Shown: one piece after another, positions 15,276 to 21,992 of the stretch | How positions within the stretch are numbered: position 1 is the stretch's first letter | Layout: each line of letters starts with the position of its first letter | Assembly: GCF_036711975.1 (NCBI RefSeq) | Contig: NC_091976.1 | Span: 3,038,001-3,102,000 of the forward strand | Length of the DNA stretch: 64,000 bases | Origin: Onthophagus taurus | Taxonomy: Eukaryota; Arthropoda; Insecta; Coleoptera; Scarabaeidae | Reading direction: 5' to 3' | Made by a program: the position numbers and the translations under genes | The notes under the pieces: generated by a model | The model's input: only the letters and a program-made list of their open reading frames with translations | What the model was told of the DNA's origin: nothing | Database searches by the model: none

Positions 15276-16402
15276 TCCCCTACGACGCTTAAGTTTCGGT
15301 TATATCAAGGCAACGTCACGCTTCTTCAGCTTGAATTGTGGTTATAAACGATAATTATATAATGCAATATATCCATAAATTGTACATTGCGAGATTTATT
15401 TCTAATTAGTTACAATACCACATTTTTCAAATCTAATTTTTTTTGTGTGTATTTTAGGTGGGGCTGCCCTCTAAAAGTATAGATAGTTACCGATTTGTCT
15501 CTGTTGTGCACTGCTTAACCTTGCACTGAAATTACAAACACCCTCAAGAAAGTTATTTTGCTTAACAATTAAATGACACCAACTATGGTTTTTCTGTAGT
15601 CTAATTTTCGAAGACAATTCCTCAGTTTAACAGGTAATAGTTTAATTTTTTTTATCATGTTTGTTCATAAATTAATCAGCATCAGATTATAATAATTTTT
15701 GTGTTAATGTATTACAATAATGATTCTGTATTATGACTTTTAATCATAAAGAATCTTGTAAGCCTTTTTTTTGCAAAATTACAAAATTGTTTGATGTAGA
15801 AAAATTGAACAAAGAATCTTTCATAACGAATTAACTAACCAAAGCATGATTTATCAATCACATTAAATATCAAATTAATTTATTGGGAAAAGTACTAAGT
15901 ACATTGTTGTTTGCAACTATAACTCTTTAAATTAGGAAGTGTTCAGATAATTTTAATAACTTTTACAATGATTGTGTTAAGGTTCTTTGTTATCATCGTA
16001 ATGTTAAATTTTGATAATAGAAATAATATTCGTACTTAACAATGGAGATTTTTATTTATTTTTAGGTTTCAACCAGTTTCGGCTATCGCCATCTTCAGGA
16101 AACCACGTTGTAGTGAATCAATTTTTTGTTCACAAACCATAATATTACTTCTCTTCTATTTTCTTATTCTTTCTCTATTGTTCTTACTTATTTTGTAACA
16201 TTTACTATATTTACTTAATTAAATAATGTGTGTAATCCAAATTTATTATATCTTATTTCTATTTTCTTTGTGATAAAATTTAGGCGCGATCATTGTTTAT
16301 TTTTAGAAGAGTATAACCTAAAAATTGGCAATGATTTCAGCGGCGCCGCGGCGTTCAGTTACAAGGTGTAATATTTAACAGATTTTCCTAACAAGAAGAT
16401 AC
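15276..16402. other. AT-rich intergenic stretch, no gene seen
   Basis: No ORF or repeat family is recognised over about 1.1 kb. Near 16064-16110 the minus strand reads CCTGAAGATGGCGATAGCCG followed by AAACTGG, similar in style to the tail of Penelope-like elements (compare 58.85 kb). A short GC-rich patch (GCGGCGCCGCGGCG) occurs near 16339. Confidence 0.35.
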
Positions 16403-16464
16403 TATCTTCGTCTTCCAACATGCACAATTTCAGTTTAAATAAACATTCATAATGAAACTACTAA
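16403..16464 (+). repeat. Direct repeat copy 1 flanking the Harbinger element
   Basis: About 62 bp, TATCTTCGTCTTCCAACATG...AATGAAACTACTAA, repeated in the same orientation at 19203-19264 with few differences. The two copies bracket the Harbinger insertion but are separated from its ends by unrelated sequence, so they are not its target duplication. Confidence 0.65.
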
Positions 16465-16619: not shown

Positions 16620-16936
16620 TTCTCCTCCCAGCAGAGTTGTGCCGCTCTCCATGTGAGAGTAAGTTATACTACTTTAGTACTACTTCCATACCAAATTTTA
16701 TTGCGCTAACGCGGTGTCCTGCGTGAGCGACGAATACGACGCGACGCGATGCTACATGCGACATATGTCAATCATGGAGAAGTACAGCACAATTTTGCTT
16801 GAAAGTTCATATTTAATGTACAGACTTTTAAAAAATATCGTAAAAAGTACAGAAAGAAAACAAATATAGTATTTTTACAAAGAAACACATTTGCGAGTTC
16901 CATCATTTATATCCAAAATTAAGAAACGATTCTAAA

Positions 16937-18833
16937 ATGTTTAAACAATATTGTGGAGTGTTACCTTCTACTTTCGATTACATTATTGCTGGTATTAAGT
17001 CTGAATTTCAATTAAAAACAACAAATTTTCAAAAACCTATTTCTATTGAAGAAAGATTACTGTTGACATTGCGGTGAGTACATAGAAATGAAACTACATA
17101 ATATTGTATTATTGAAAATATTTTAATTATTATGAAAGTATCACTGAGATGAATCACCAGAAGTGAAGTAACTCATCGTTGAAGATTCTGTGTTTGATGG
17201 GGTATTCAGTTTTGATATTTCGTTGATGAGCATCTCCTGAACCTGAGTCCGAAATAATAATTTATTCAGAGATGGTAGCTTTTTCATATACGGCATTATA
17301 GACTTGAACCAGTTCAAGTCGTCGTCGACTTCATTTAAATCTTTCTTCATTAGGTCTATTTTTTCTCGTTCGAGTGTTATTAAAATTTCTTCAATACTTT
17401 TTGCTGCACTTTCTTGTACCTTTTGGTCGCGATGGGGTATGCAACGATACAGGTGTCGAGGTATCATATCGTATCTGTGCCGAAATAGCATTTTGTGCAG
17501 TTGCAGCATCAGTCGTAGGGCCATCAATTGTTGCCAAATTGGTATCATCTGTATTGAACTGCGATTCATCGGTTTGTGTATTGTATGATGTTTGCTCAGA
17601 AAGAATAGACATCATTGTATCATCATCGATAATGTCGCTTTCATCTAATATTTCATTTTGAATATTACTAGTAGTTTTACGAGGTTTCAAAATTGTCTTT
17701 AAAAATTGCATTGATTCAAAATGTGGCCAATCGCCTTGATATTGACCATTTTGATCTGCATCCGAACCCGATCTTGGCTTTTCTACTTTGTTAAGGTCTC
17801 TGTTATAGGAATCTCTTAAATTCTTCCACTTCTTTTTCACATCATCAGCTGAAATTGAAACAATATTATTATTTACAGATATTTGGTTACTGGAACACCA
17901 TATAGAAAGTTATCATTCAATTTCCGAATATCAAAAACTGCCATTTCAAACATAGTGAAAGAAGTGTATACTGGAATTTGGAAGACTTTAGTAATAAAAC
18001 ATATGCCTATACCTACAACTGAAATGTGGAAAAGTATCGTAAAAAAATTCTGGGAGAAATGGCAATTTCCTAATTGCATTGGTAGCCTTGATAGCAAACA
18101 CATACGTATTAAGAAACCAAAAACATTTGGTTCTATGTACTACAATTATAAGGGATTTTTCTCTATTGTATTACTAGCCTTAACTGATGCTAACTATAAA
18201 TTTATAATGGTTGATATTGGTGCCTATGGAAAAGATAACGACGCTGGAGTTTTTCACGCGTGTACTTTACGACAAGCAATAGAACATAAAAAATTACAAA
18301 TACCGGAACCCGACTTTTTACCAAATACCCTCATTAAAGCGCCTTTTGTGTTTGTGGGTGATGCTGCATTCCCATTAAAAACATACCTTCTGAAGCCTTA
18401 TGCACAAAAAAATGTCAGCGAGGGAGATATTAAAGAGCGGTTCAACTATAGATTGTCTCGAGCGAGGATGGTCGTTGAGTGTTCTTTTGGTTCAATAACG
18501 TCAAGATTTGGATTACTTAATAGGCCAATTGAGACAGATATTGAAAATACAATTAACACTATAAAAGCTATAACTCTACTTCACAATATAATACGTGATC
18601 TTGAGAGTAATTGCGAAAATTTGACGTCAACTTCGTCACCTCATCTTCAACCATCAAGAAGATATAATGCCTCAAGTCACATACAAGAGAGACATTCGCG
18701 AAATATTTTAATGAACATTGAAGGTTTCATATTATTAAATTATTTCGATGTCTCTATAAAATATATTTTATCTTCCAATATCAAGTATCCATTCGCTTCT
18801 TTAGGGTATTCTGCCAATATATTACTATATTAA
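16937..18833 (+). CDS. Harbinger transposase, two exons (16937-17073, 17879-18833)
   Basis: DDE transposase for the 16.7-19.1 kb element. Exon 1 encodes MFKQYCGVLPSTFDYIIAGI...EERLLLTLR and ends at donor CG|GTGAGT; exon 2 begins after ATTTACAG at 17878. Splicing recreates a split arginine codon and the conserved LLLTLR-YLVTGTPYRKL. The product is 363 residues from this ATG; the frame is open another ~30 codons upstream with family-like residues (EFHHLYPKL), so the true start may be earlier. Catalytic positions are seen in GSLDSKHIR (D), AYGKDNDAGVF (D) and RARMVVECSFG (E). The 805 bp intron contains MADF exon 2 in antisense. An AATAAA at 18857-18862 could end the transcript inside the MADF intron. 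Confidence 0.85.
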
Positions 18834-19004
18834 ATACTAAACTTGATAATAATTTAAATAAAACTTACCTGTGCATTCTAATGCTTCGGCAACATTCTTC
18901 CAACTTCTTTGTATTAATAAACGATTCCTATAATGTTTATGTTTTTTGTCCCACAACAATCTTTGCTCACGCACTGCGGCGATCAACGCTTCTGAATCAA
19001 CCAT
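17141..19004 (-). pseudogene. Harbinger MADF/BESS accessory protein (18869-19004, 17141-17848), one frameshift
   Basis: The MADF domain (MVDSEALIAAVREQRLLWDK...) binds DNA; in Harbinger elements the Myb/MADF partner helps the transposase enter the nucleus and bind ends. Exon 1 ends at ACAG|GTAAGT (intron from 18868), and exon 2 starts after TTTCAG (intron end 17849). The joined reading is ...AEALECTADDVKKKWKNLRD, as expected for MADF. The tail carries a BESS-like motif (LFRTQVQEMLINEIS). A frameshift near 17420 shifts the last ~90 residues. The 1020 bp intron encloses transposase exon 2 with about 30 bp to spare on either side. The start at 19004 is preferred over 19040 because MADF begins there. 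Confidence 0.8.
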
Positions 19005-19202
19005 TACGTAGTTCGTGGTGTCGCATCTGATCGCCCTCAAAACAAGTCTGCGTTACGTCGCGTCTCGCCGCTGACTGTCATATAGGCCGCAAGTAGGGTA
19101 TGCCGTTGAGTTGATCGCGTTCGTCGCTCACGCAGGACACCACGTAAACACAAGCGTTCAGATTATACAGGGTGTGCTCGTGAATTATTTCCAACAGTGT
19201 AT

Positions 19203-19264
19203 TATCTTCGTCTTCTAACATGCACAATTTCAGTTTAAATAAACATTAATAATGAAACTACTAA
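19203..19264 (+). repeat. Direct repeat copy 2 flanking the Harbinger element
   Basis: Partner of 16403-16464. It follows a mariner-like phrase TTATACAGGGTGTGCTCGTG at about 19166, suggesting that both copies are pieces of mariner-type ends or a MITE family. Confidence 0.6.
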
Positions 19265-19477: not shown

Positions 19478-21992
19478 CCCTGCGTGTGTACACTACATTT
19501 TTCGAGACACGGTGTGTACACTGGGTCTTTTAGAGAACTGTCGTGTTTTCTGAGATTTCTAGGTTTACAAAAATCTGAAAAAATTCAGAGTTACTCTTGG
19601 AAAGATATATCACAAGACATGATAGTTTCCAAACTCGAAATTTTAAATGTATTGCTAATAAAAATTGAAGTACAGTCAAAACTACAACAAAACACACGTG
19701 TTGTTCAAAAATTCGTAATTCTATAATAAATATATATAAATATAAAAACTACGCTAAGGGTTTGTAGCTTAGACTATGACTTTTGAAATGAATATAGTGT
19801 CATTGATGTCGACTCCGAAAAGTTTAATTATTTCGGCACTTGAATGTAGGAGACATTTTATTGATTTAGACAGGTAATAAGAATTTGGAAAGATAATTAT
19901 TTGCTACTAAATAAGTGTTTATTATAAAAAAATACAAACGATATAATGATATATGTAAACTAAAAAAAAAGAAGATATTTGTTATGCACAATTGTGGCAA
20001 AAGTGAGTTCGGTGATCGTCGCACACAGGTGATCCACACGACGCACAACTGTACAAAGTTTTTTTGTTGTCTCTCCAACTACAAACAGAACACCGTTTTC
20101 GTTTTTGTAATCTACCAGTTTCGTTAGAACGATGTTCGTTTACTTCAAGAACTTCACTAACTAAGGTTCTGACGCTTCTGCGTAAGGTGGATTTTCGTAG
20201 CCGGTCTTCTAGATGAGGCTTTATAAGACTGAAAGTTAACTCCTTCAAAAACGAACGGCAATTTAAAGCGGAGTTAGCTTCTCTCAAATTATATAGAACT
20301 GCGCTGTTGACTCCTGCCTGATCTAGCATTCCAAAAAATAGGCGCATAGGCCATCGCTTTGTAATTCGGCTTGTGCTGTAGCATTTACAAAGCTGGTCGA
20401 ACGTATCTGTTCCTCCTTTAGTAGCATTATAAAATGCGACGATGTCTGGCTTGCCAATTTCTTCATTCATATGGCCTCTTTTGTGTAAGCTGGATAATAA
20501 CAAAACCACCTTATTTCGTTTCGGGCTATACGACAATAAAGTCATTCCATCGGCGTAGGCGTACCTCACCGTGCCGGCAGCAGTTGATTGGAGGAAAGTC
20601 GATGGTATTTCAGGCTTATTTTTGCGCAACGTGCCAACCATACTCAAGGAATAATTGTGCTTCATTTCTCTTACAATATTGACAGACATAAACCAGTTAT
20701 CACAGGTAATATTGCGTCCAGTATTACGTATAGTCTCAGTCAATTTCTTTATGTAATAACTGGGCACTGTATCTCCTGCGGCTGTTTCTATCCGTCCAAC
20801 ATAAGGTTCGGCATCTATCGTATACGATGTCTGCACGTCGTTGCAACTAACAATTTTTATACCATATTTGTCCGGTTTATTGGCAATGTACACTTGCGCT
20901 GCAAAACGGCCACGAAACCCCAGAAGTTGTTCGTCGATGGTGCAATTAGTAGAGGGCGAATAATACTTCTTGCAATTTACAATAAATGCGTCCCATAGTT
21001 CTTTTATGGGGGCTAAAGCATGTTCTGTTCTTCTTACATTTCGACTATTCTTCTCGTCGAACCGAAGGTTTTGCAAGAGGTATTGAAATCGACGTTCTGG
21101 CATTACAGCTCTGTATAAATTATATCCAAATTGAGGACTCCATAGATCCTCTAAATTTGTGTGGTTGTGTTTTTCCATGCCGGTAAAATACAGCAATCCG
21201 ATTAAAGCTTTTAGCTCGACTATATCTGTATTTCGGCAAAATGATGCGTTTTGATTTTCAATGTTCACTCGGTTTCTCTCGATTTCTTCATTCGTATGCT
21301 GAATAATCATTTCAAGCATTTCGGGAGTAAATAATAGGGTCCAAGCTTCCAATGGTGTTGAGACATTCTTTGCTTCTTCCCTCGCTGAGGGCAAGTAAAC
21401 GTGAAATGAACGGCGTCCCCGGGATTCAGGTGCGATCGTGGACCACTTGAAATTATTTTTACCTTTTATTACTGACCGCGGACGGCCTAGCCGAGGTTGG
21501 ATATTTTCCTCGATCTCGTCTACTTGTCGTCTTCTGAGCTCATCAAAATCAGAGTCCTCATCGGCATCTTGCTCATCAGCTATTTCTTCATGAACTTCCT
21601 CACCGTCAACATCATTATCGCTTTCTTCGTCATAACACACATCAAGGCGACGGTCACGTAGATAATACATCACCTGGTTTCCATTTCGTTCGCCCATCTT
21701 CAAAAACTGTTCAATCAACAACACTTTAAACGACTTGTTTAAACTTATTTAAATGACGCTTGAAAACACCAACGTCAATTGTACACTGACCCTTTCGGGG
21801 AACGGTCGCGAATAAAATTACCTGTCGTTGTCAAATAAATAATCAAATCAGGGCGCTATTTAACCGACTAATCCCCACTACTACCTAGATTTTTTACGGG
21901 TGCAATTTGAAACCCGATCCTTGTTAATAGAACGAAAATTTGATTTTAAAGTTTTTACTGTTCCTTTAAAGACCCAGTGTTCACACGCAGGG
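19478..21992 (-). mobile_element. Complete piggyBac element C with TTAA duplication
   Basis: TTAA at 19474-19477 and 21993-21996 flank inverted ends starting CCCTGCGTGTG(T/A)ACAC. Inside the left end a second GTGTACACTGGGTCTTT is found at about 19510-19527, and TAAAGACCCAGTGTTCACAC closes the right end, giving a bipartite terminal structure typical of piggyBac. The one gene is uninterrupted, so this copy is a good candidate for an autonomous element. Confidence 0.93.
19982..21724 (-). CDS. piggyBac transposase, intact (580 aa)
   Basis: Acidic N-terminus (residues 30-65), then DDE_Tnp_1_7 with catalytic aspartates at about D264 (CTIDEQLLGFRGR), D342 (ITCDNWFMS) and D440 (KGGTDTFDQL). The C-terminal cysteine-rich domain (about 545-580) has CSVC, CASC, CDDH and CHNC pairs for zinc binding. 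Length is normal for the family. A second ATG nine codons in (MGERNG) may be the true start. The protein is clearly different from piggyBac A, so the two belong to separate families with different terminal repeats. Confidence 0.93.
   Translation of the reverse strand: MLLIEQFLKMGERNGNQVMYYLRDRRLDVCYDEESDNDVDGEEVHEEIADEQDADEDSDFDELRRRQVDEIEENIQPRLGRPRSVIKGKNNFKWSTIAPESRGRRSFHVYLPSAREEAKNVSTPLEAWTLLFTPEMLEMIIQHTNEEIERNRVNIENQNASFCRNTDIVELKALIGLLYFTGMEKHNHTNLEDLWSPQFGYNLYRAVMPERRFQYLLQNLRFDEKNSRNVRRTEHALAPIKELWDAFIVNCKKYYSPSTNCTIDEQLLGFRGRFAAQVYIANKPDKYGIKIVSCNDVQTSYTIDAEPYVGRIETAAGDTVPSYYIKKLTETIRNTGRNITCDNWFMSVNIVREMKHNYSLSMVGTLRKNKPEIPSTFLQSTAAGTVRYAYADGMTLLSYSPKRNKVVLLLSSLHKRGHMNEEIGKPDIVAFYNATKGGTDTFDQLCKCYSTSRITKRWPMRLFFGMLDQAGVNSAVLYNLREANSALNCRSFLKELTFSLIKPHLEDRLRKSTLRRSVRTLVSEVLEVNEHRSNETGRLQKRKRCSVCSWRDNKKTLYSCASCGSPVCDDHRTHFCHNCA

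What the first reader, a model, noticed from the sequence alone, without database searches (positions are those of the whole stretch)
16710..19144. Two transposon genes on opposite strands with mutually interlocked exons and introns
In this Harbinger element the order is transposase E1 (+), MADF E2 (-), transposase E2 (+), MADF E1 (-). The transposase intron (17074-17878) holds MADF exon 2, and the MADF intron (17849-18868) holds transposase exon 2, with about 30 bp clearance. All four splice sites are consensus and restore the expected protein text. Mature mRNAs would not overlap, but the two pre-mRNAs would be complementary over nearly 2 kb, so splicing decides whether double-stranded RNA persists. 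That could couple expression of the two proteins or make the element a natural source of small RNAs. Harbinger is known to encode a transposase plus a Myb/MADF protein; I am not aware of this interlocked layout being described as a conserved feature.
Basis: partly seen in the sequence, partly recalled or inferred. Interest (0 to 1): 0.88.

Follow-up and report, generated by a model that had tools for sequence, protein, structure and literature searches.

The report
Beetle transposons with interlocked genes
In a dung beetle's genome, several very different families of a cut-and-paste transposon carry their two genes on opposite strands, each with an exon sitting inside the other's intron; the layout looks old and compatible with recent jumping, but splicing and purpose are not yet tested in RNA.

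Summary
Window 16710-19144 is a PIF/Harbinger element (TIRs, TAA target duplication) whose transposase (+) and MADF/BESS gene (-) are interlocked: tpase exon 1, MADF exon 2, tpase exon 2, MADF exon 1. The window copy is decayed in both genes, but the splice sites are kept in all 4 copies found. The host is taken to be Onthophagus taurus. Of 10 families in this genome with a readable exon order, 9 are interlocked (7 with all four parts, 2 with three) at 33-58% transposase identity. Family B has 8 of 9 copies full-length, 99.9-100% identical, open in both genes. Eight of the nine have introns at the same sites as far as these could be located; one (F) has the same topology with different introns in both genes. 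One family (G, decayed, ends not found) reads tail-to-tail with short introns at the same sites. The two acceptors face each other across 21-98 bp in 6 of 7 families measured. Ten library searches listed no description of this layout. All families come from one genome; no RNA data were available, so splicing, dsRNA and coupled expression remain untested.

The parts
16707..16709 (.). target site duplication, left (TAA)
16701..16739 (+). left terminal inverted repeat region (element proper begins 16710)
   Evidence: pair I1, 39 nt, 85% complementary to 19115-19153
16774..17073 (+). transposase exon 1 (frame broken in this copy; in-frame internal ATG at 16937)
   Evidence: N-terminus MEKYST read in the sister copies
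17074..17878 (+). transposase intron, phase 2, hosts MADF exon 2 on the other strand
17141..17848 (-). MADF/BESS gene exon 2 (11-bp deletion at 17426/17427 in this copy)
   Evidence: domains scanned on a sister copy
17849..17878 (.). 30-bp spacer shared by both introns; holds both 3' splice sites, facing each other on opposite strands
17849..18868 (-). MADF intron, phase 1, hosts transposase exon 2 on the other strand
17879..18721 (+). transposase exon 2 (DDE domain); frame shifted near 18678 in this copy, then runs to 18833
   Evidence: domains scanned on a sister copy
18869..19004 (-). MADF exon 1 with start codon 19004-19002
19115..19153 (-). right terminal inverted repeat region (element proper ends 19144)
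19145..19147 (.). target site duplication, right (TAA)

Best explanation
This is a degenerate copy of an autonomous PIF/Harbinger transposon whose two genes are mutually nested in antisense. Each gene is likely driven from its own end of the element (inferred). Each pre-mRNA runs through the partner's downstream exon, which is removed within its own intron. Each coding region is followed by a possible polyadenylation signal placed before the partner's first exon, so mature mRNAs need share no complementary sequence, while unspliced RNAs are complementary over 1.6-2.1 kb (families A-D). The layout is an old, inherited architecture of this Harbinger lineage, not an oddity of one copy, and works well enough for recent transposition (families B and C). 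The likeliest reason it persists is that it is functional and hard to undo: leaving it needs a rearrangement that moves one 3' exon past the other without breaking either gene, and most internal deletions hit both genes. Shown: order, splice signals, phases, recurrence across families, intact young copies. Inferred: promoters, actual splicing, poly(A) use, reason for persistence.
For: Splice sites kept in 4 of 4 family-A copies. Same order in 9 of 10 families with a readable order: A, B, C, D, F, I, J with four parts, E and H with three. The tpase acceptor (TLR|Y/FxATG, phase 2) and the MADF acceptor (inside the MADF domain, phase 1) are at the same places in A, B, C, D, E, H and J; in I both donors are at the same places. 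Family B: 8 of 9 copies full length, 99.9-100% identical, 394- and 267-aa frames open, different flanks; family C: 6 of 9 copies open in both genes, and 8 of 8 copies with both ends carry the same duplication (TTA or TAA) on both sides, two of them sharing flanks. NCBI's O. taurus proteins equal my spliced models: P0124 (A MADF), P0129 (B tpase, 100%). Lepidopteran P0122 (Pieris napi, 287 aa) aligns across the MADF exon junction at 87%. Sense AATAAA in 6 and ATTAAA in the other 2 of the 8 outer gaps of A-D. Eight of the nine interlocked families fall in three groups with support 98/99, 99/95 and 100/99; F is unplaced.
Against: No RNA evidence of splicing; annotated proteins may be predictions. 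AATAAA by chance is not rare in these AT-rich gaps (6-75% per gap by shuffling). Families were found by DNA similarity to A or to L028, all in one genome, and the Pfam-wide genome search did not complete, so this is no census. Only B, C and D have open frames for all exons of both genes (and D was read in one copy); E, H, I and J are decayed. G reads tail-to-tail although it groups with C/H/I. Elsewhere the layout differs: a frog gene model has MADF and DDE on one strand (P0238) and a termite model joins MADF exon 1 to tpase exon 2 (P0029). F does not fit simple inheritance of the same introns.
Confidence: 0.72

Rival explanations
1. The topology itself is selected: convergent transcription and the complementary pre-mRNAs limit or couple the two proteins (dsRNA and small RNAs from unspliced RNA, or collision of polymerases), giving the element copy-number self-control.
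For: Topology shared by families at 33-58% tpase identity. Family F has the topology with different intron positions in both genes. Possible poly(A) signals in the gaps would keep mature mRNAs apart, so only unspliced RNA would pair.
Against: No small-RNA or RNA-seq data. Family G seems to lack the topology. Family B reached at least 8 near-identical full-length copies, so any brake is not strict.
Confidence: 0.2
2. Interlock arose more than once from a tail-to-tail ancestor with short introns at the same sites, for example by tandem duplication of the two 3' exons followed by loss of one copy of each.
For: G has both introns at the same positions but 98 and 62 bp long and reads tail-to-tail. 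F has other introns, so needs either a second origin or replacement of both introns. Tail-to-tail Harbingers are reported in Ectocarpus (PMC12477816, passages read).
Against: One loss in G explains the data as well: the fewest changes on the tree is 1. G rests on one decayed locus (L028) that also holds fragments of other Harbingers and shows no TIRs, plus L045, where the tpase and only the 3' part of MADF were recognised. The branch that sets C/H/I apart from G is weak (89/73) and F's place is unsure.
Confidence: 0.3
3. Neutral frozen accident without any function beyond coding.
For: The element is no shorter than a tail-to-tail one with short introns would be, apart from the two introns; nothing measured here needs a benefit.
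Against: Spacers of 21 and 25 bp in E and H mean that 19 and 15 of 23 positions of the usual branch-point zone lie in the partner's coding exon, a cost that drift alone must carry. F suggests re-creation of the topology.
Confidence: 0.35
4. Artefact: the introns are not spliced and the order is chance nesting of broken copies.
For: The window copy is decayed; no RNA was seen.
Against: Open young copies at many sites; same order and intron phases in diverged sequence; the annotated P0129 and P0124 agree with the splices.
Confidence: 0.03

Closest known systems
PIF/Harbinger transposons (Ping/Pong, Harbinger3_DR, insect PIFs)
   Same: DDE_Tnp_4 transposase plus a second Myb/MADF gene, TIRs, 3-bp TWA duplications. 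Two element proteins are required for transposition in the tested elements (PMC2836001 passages; PMC9710019 section 3).
   Different: The gene layout. A passage of PMC2836001 says that the two genes appear to be independent; I read no description of interlocking.
Domesticated insect PIF pairs, as in Anopheles APLG/APM (PMC9710019)
   Same: Tpase-MADF pairs taken to come from one insertion.
   Different: Neighbouring genes 97 and 179 bp apart in A. gambiae, not always in one direction, without TIRs or TSDs (section 6 read; figures not held).
Ectocarpus Harbingers (PMC12477816, passages read)
   Same: Two genes on opposite strands in one Harbinger.
   Different: Reported as tail-to-tail; this resembles family G, not the window family.
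Ordinary nested and antisense-overlapping host genes (search listings only)
   Same: A gene or exon inside another gene's intron on the other strand.
   Different: Here nesting is reciprocal, within one mobile element, and repeated across families.

Membership tests
PIF/Harbinger | DDE_Tnp_4 transposase | tested here: met
   PF13359 E 3.9e-26 in a family-A tpase (sister copy L003, from the internal ATG), also in B, C and F
PIF/Harbinger | D-D-E catalytic residues | tested here: met
   columns D76, D166, E205 invariant in 17 of 17 aligned sequences (A, B, C and 14 relatives); that these are the catalytic triad is recalled
PIF/Harbinger | 3-bp TWA target site duplication | tested here: met
   family A: TAA (window), TTA (L002), TAA (L003/L004); family C: same triplet on both sides in 8 of 8 copies with both ends
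PIF/Harbinger | terminal inverted repeats | tested here: met
   A, B, C, D and, only 71-76% complementary, F; none found around G or in the short E, H, I stretches
PIF/Harbinger | second gene with a Myb/SANT/MADF domain | tested here: met
   MADF E 5.7e-23 plus BESS in family A (sister copy); MADF also in B, C, D, F, and partial in H and J; BESS alone in the piece of I
PIF/Harbinger | both proteins needed for transposition | not testable with these tools
   bench assay needed
Tail-to-tail Harbinger layout | 3' ends adjacent, neither gene inside the other | tested here: not met
   window family and 8 other families; met only by G

The most novel reading that the evidence does not exclude
The interlocked topology is under selection in its own right and has been rebuilt with different introns (family F), making Harbinger a transposon class whose two proteins can only be made when splicing removes two mutually antisense introns, through a shared acceptor spacer as short as 21 bp.
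Probability: 0.2. Interest if true: 0.85.

Novelty: new variant of a known kind. Interest (0 to 1): 0.66.

Why it matters
If spliced as predicted, these elements are natural experiments on how cells handle reciprocal antisense genes: two convergent transcripts, two acceptors within 21-98 bp on opposite strands in most families measured, and two proteins that probably must be made together. The layout may also matter in practice: gene finders and repeat annotators may miss or fuse such genes, and domesticated Harbinger pairs may carry long introns that are relics of it. Comparison of interlocked, tail-to-tail and shifted-intron families makes the question of why the genes are interlocked testable.

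Tried and rejected
Rejected: chance nesting or artefact (see rivals). Rejected as sole reason: compaction, because exons do not overlap and the saving is at most two short introns.

Led nowhere: viral-contig scans (no relative). The genome-contig scan gave 1 locus, L023, a likely eukaryotic contaminant in a bacterial MAG, whose tpase runs through the TLR site without an intron; no MADF gene was recognised on it. No other insect genome could be read, so layout outside this genome is unknown. The tpase B search (best 120 of 4,830 listed) was meant to find transcript-derived full-length proteins; for O. taurus it gave NCBI's annotated P0129, which is not RNA evidence.

Loci without a usable order, not counted among the 10 families: L017 (fragment), L020/L030 (fragments), L021/L029 (mixed fragments; one TE2-/ME2+ pair is consistent with interlock), L022 (only short tandem matches), L047 (C-like, tpase exon 2 next to MADF exon 2 on opposite strands, partial), L023 (above). 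In H and E tpase exon 1 was not found (in H a mariner-like ORF, recognised from memory, lies upstream). In I the MADF middle part and the tpase acceptor were not found. F's first copy (L026) has a damaged tpase exon 2 start; the second copy (L024) reads through; F's tpase 5' end was not defined.

Literature searches: searches gave 0 papers; one gave 6, 27 gave 2, 36 gave 5, 37 gave 3, 79 gave 1,452 (15 listed), 83 gave 192 (20 listed). Seen: PMC9710019 (outline, passages, sections 3 and 6), PMC12477816, PMC11893794 and PMC2836001 (passages); all other papers as listings only. Casola et al. 2007 on Drosophila PIFs is recalled and was not read; Repbase was not available. Either may already show this layout.

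Full report
What was checked. The window is G000:C11:3038001-3102000 of a 291-Mb genome. An NCBI protein of Onthophagus taurus (P0124) is listed on a contig of 34,988,216 bp, the length of C11, and equals the window's spliced MADF letter for letter, so the host is taken to be this dung beetle. The element runs from 16710 to 19144 between TAA duplications, with inverted ends. Its transposase intron (17074-17878) contains the second exon of a MADF/BESS gene on the other strand, whose intron (17849-18868) contains transposase exon 2. Pfam confirms both proteins on sister copies.

State of the window family. A DNA search, whose counts are lower bounds, found 4 full copies at 95-100% identity: the window, L002, and L003/L004, which are a tandem duplication. 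Splice sites are the same in the 4. No copy has both genes intact. In the window, tpase exon 1 has two frame changes, exon 2 a 10-bp deletion near its end, and MADF an 11-bp deletion. L002 is broken in both genes. L003 and L004 have a full MADF frame without ATG and a broken tpase exon 1. The tpase start is most likely 16774, read from the sister copies.

Is the layout conserved? DNA similarity to tpase exon 2 led to other Harbinger families in the same genome. I translated the four parts of the window family and searched the other loci, then used newly found families as queries. Ten families have a readable exon order. Nine are interlocked: A (window), B (L012), C (L009), D (L024), F (L026 and a second copy in L024), I (L044) and J (L046) with all four parts, and E (L027) and H (L043) with tpase exon 2 lying between the two MADF exons on the other strand but without a found tpase exon 1. 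The tenth, G (L028), reads tail-to-tail. Identity of tpase exon 2 among the interlocked families is 33-58%, over partial sequence in E, I and J. Only B, C and D have open frames in all exons of both genes; E, H, I and J are decayed. The families were reached from A or from L028, so the sample is not a census.

Same introns. In A, B, C, D, E, H and J the tpase acceptor follows the same place (TLR|, before Y/FxATG, phase 2) and the MADF acceptor the same place inside the MADF domain (phase 1), with AG at each; in I both donors are at these places but the acceptors were not found. C has a further short MADF intron. Intron lengths in A-D and J are 717-1,273 bp (tpase) and 983-1,238 bp (MADF); in G they are 98 and 62 bp at the same places. 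So G and the interlocked families share introns but not order: ME1-ME2-TE2-TE1 against ME1-TE2-ME2-TE1. One route between them, by inference, is tandem duplication of the two 3' exons and loss of one copy of each. G is the weak point of this comparison: L028 is decayed, holds fragments of other Harbingers and shows no TIRs, and in L045, its relative by DNA, only the tpase and the 3' part of MADF were recognised.

Same topology, other introns. In F the tpase reads straight through the TLR site and has its intron 42 residues later; the MADF domain is whole in exon 1 and the intron lies behind it; both introns read as phase 0. Its 333-aa MADF frame is open and scores for PF10545, and its tpase exon 2 for PF13359. 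Its ends are inverted repeats of only 71-76% complementarity. F therefore has the topology without the shared introns. Its place in the tree is unsure because its branch is long.

Mobile and young. Of 9 family-B copies fetched, 8 are full length at 99.9-100% identity to L012, both frames open (394 and 267 aa), with different flanks; L034 is truncated. Of 9 family-C copies, 6 are open in both genes (408 and 306 aa); in L039 the script did not find the MADF motifs, and L014 and L042 are broken and share flanks. In the 8 C copies with both ends, both sides carry the same triplet, TTA or TAA. The interlocked unit thus moved recently. NCBI's O. taurus protein P0129 is 100% identical to my spliced 394-aa tpase. 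These annotated proteins may be predictions and are not RNA evidence.

Fine structure. The two introns overlap only in a spacer that holds both acceptors face to face: 21 bp in E, 25 in H, 30 in A, 52 in B, 92 in C, 98 in D and 362 in J. In E, H and A, 19, 15 and 10 of 23 positions of the usual -18 to -40 branch-point zone fall in the partner's coding exon (the zone itself is general knowledge). The outer gaps of A-D hold a sense AATAAA in 6 of 8 cases and ATTAAA in the other 2; shuffles give AATAAA in 6-75% of cases per gap, so this is suggestive only. If used, these signals would end each mRNA at or before the partner's exon 1.

How widespread? A tree of 32 tpases puts eight of the nine interlocked families in three supported groups: A, D, E (98/99), B and J (99/95), C, H, I with G (100/99), together with sequences from other insects, a shrimp and a frog whose layout is unknown; the root is not known. 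Among the 120 best relatives of A listed (of 3,168), 90 come only from unannotated contigs; 61 of these begin near the TLR boundary (-37 to +22 residues), 27 begin later and 2 were counted as reading through it, one of them (P0037) doubtful. The split tpase is thus common, with the caveat that short contigs can cut frames; whether those introns host MADF is unknown. Contrary cases: L023 has an unsplit tpase, a frog model has MADF and DDE on one strand (P0238), and a termite model joins MADF exon 1 to tpase exon 2 on one strand (P0029; the frame shift at the join is my reading).

Mechanism. Shown: order, splice signals, phases, recurrence, intact young copies. Inferred: promoters at both ends, splicing, poly(A) use, and persistence because the layout works and is hard to undo. 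Selection for the topology through dsRNA, collision or coupling is possible and is favoured by F and by the tight spacers, but no RNA was seen.

Known work. Two-gene Harbingers are well known, and both proteins are needed in tested elements (PMC2836001, PMC9710019, read in part). Reported layouts that I read are genes that appear independent, neighbouring domesticated pairs 97 and 179 bp apart, and tail-to-tail genes in Ectocarpus. Ten library searches gave no paper that, from listings and the passages read, describes the interlocked layout; two of them were listed only in part, and subscription papers and Repbase could not be checked.

Noticed in passing
P0122, P0125, P0127: The window family's MADF protein is 87% identical over its full length in the butterfly Pieris napi, with partial matches at 81-82% in Helicoverpa and Colias: a candidate for horizontal transfer between beetles and Lepidoptera.
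   Followed up: partly
window 19982-21748 (-): A 588-aa open frame that looks like a piggyBac transposase (recognised from memory, not scanned) lies 0.8 kb from the Harbinger element.
   Followed up: no
window 16400-16464 and 19200-19264: A 65-bp direct repeat, 95% identical, flanks the element outside its target duplications.
   Followed up: no
L003/L004 (G000:C8:16382731-16389210): Tandem duplication of one element with its flanks, 3,969 bp apart.
   Followed up: partly
L026 4328-7274 and L024 3435-6455: Family F: interlocked topology with different intron positions in both genes.
   Followed up: yes
P0029 (Zootermopsis), P0238 (Rhinoderma darwinii): Gene models with MADF and DDE parts on one strand, suggesting other layouts in termites and frogs, or merged models.
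   Followed up: partly
L023 (contig JAHZIU010000197.1): A contig filed under a betaproteobacterial MAG encodes an animal-like Harbinger transposase: likely contamination.
   Followed up: partly
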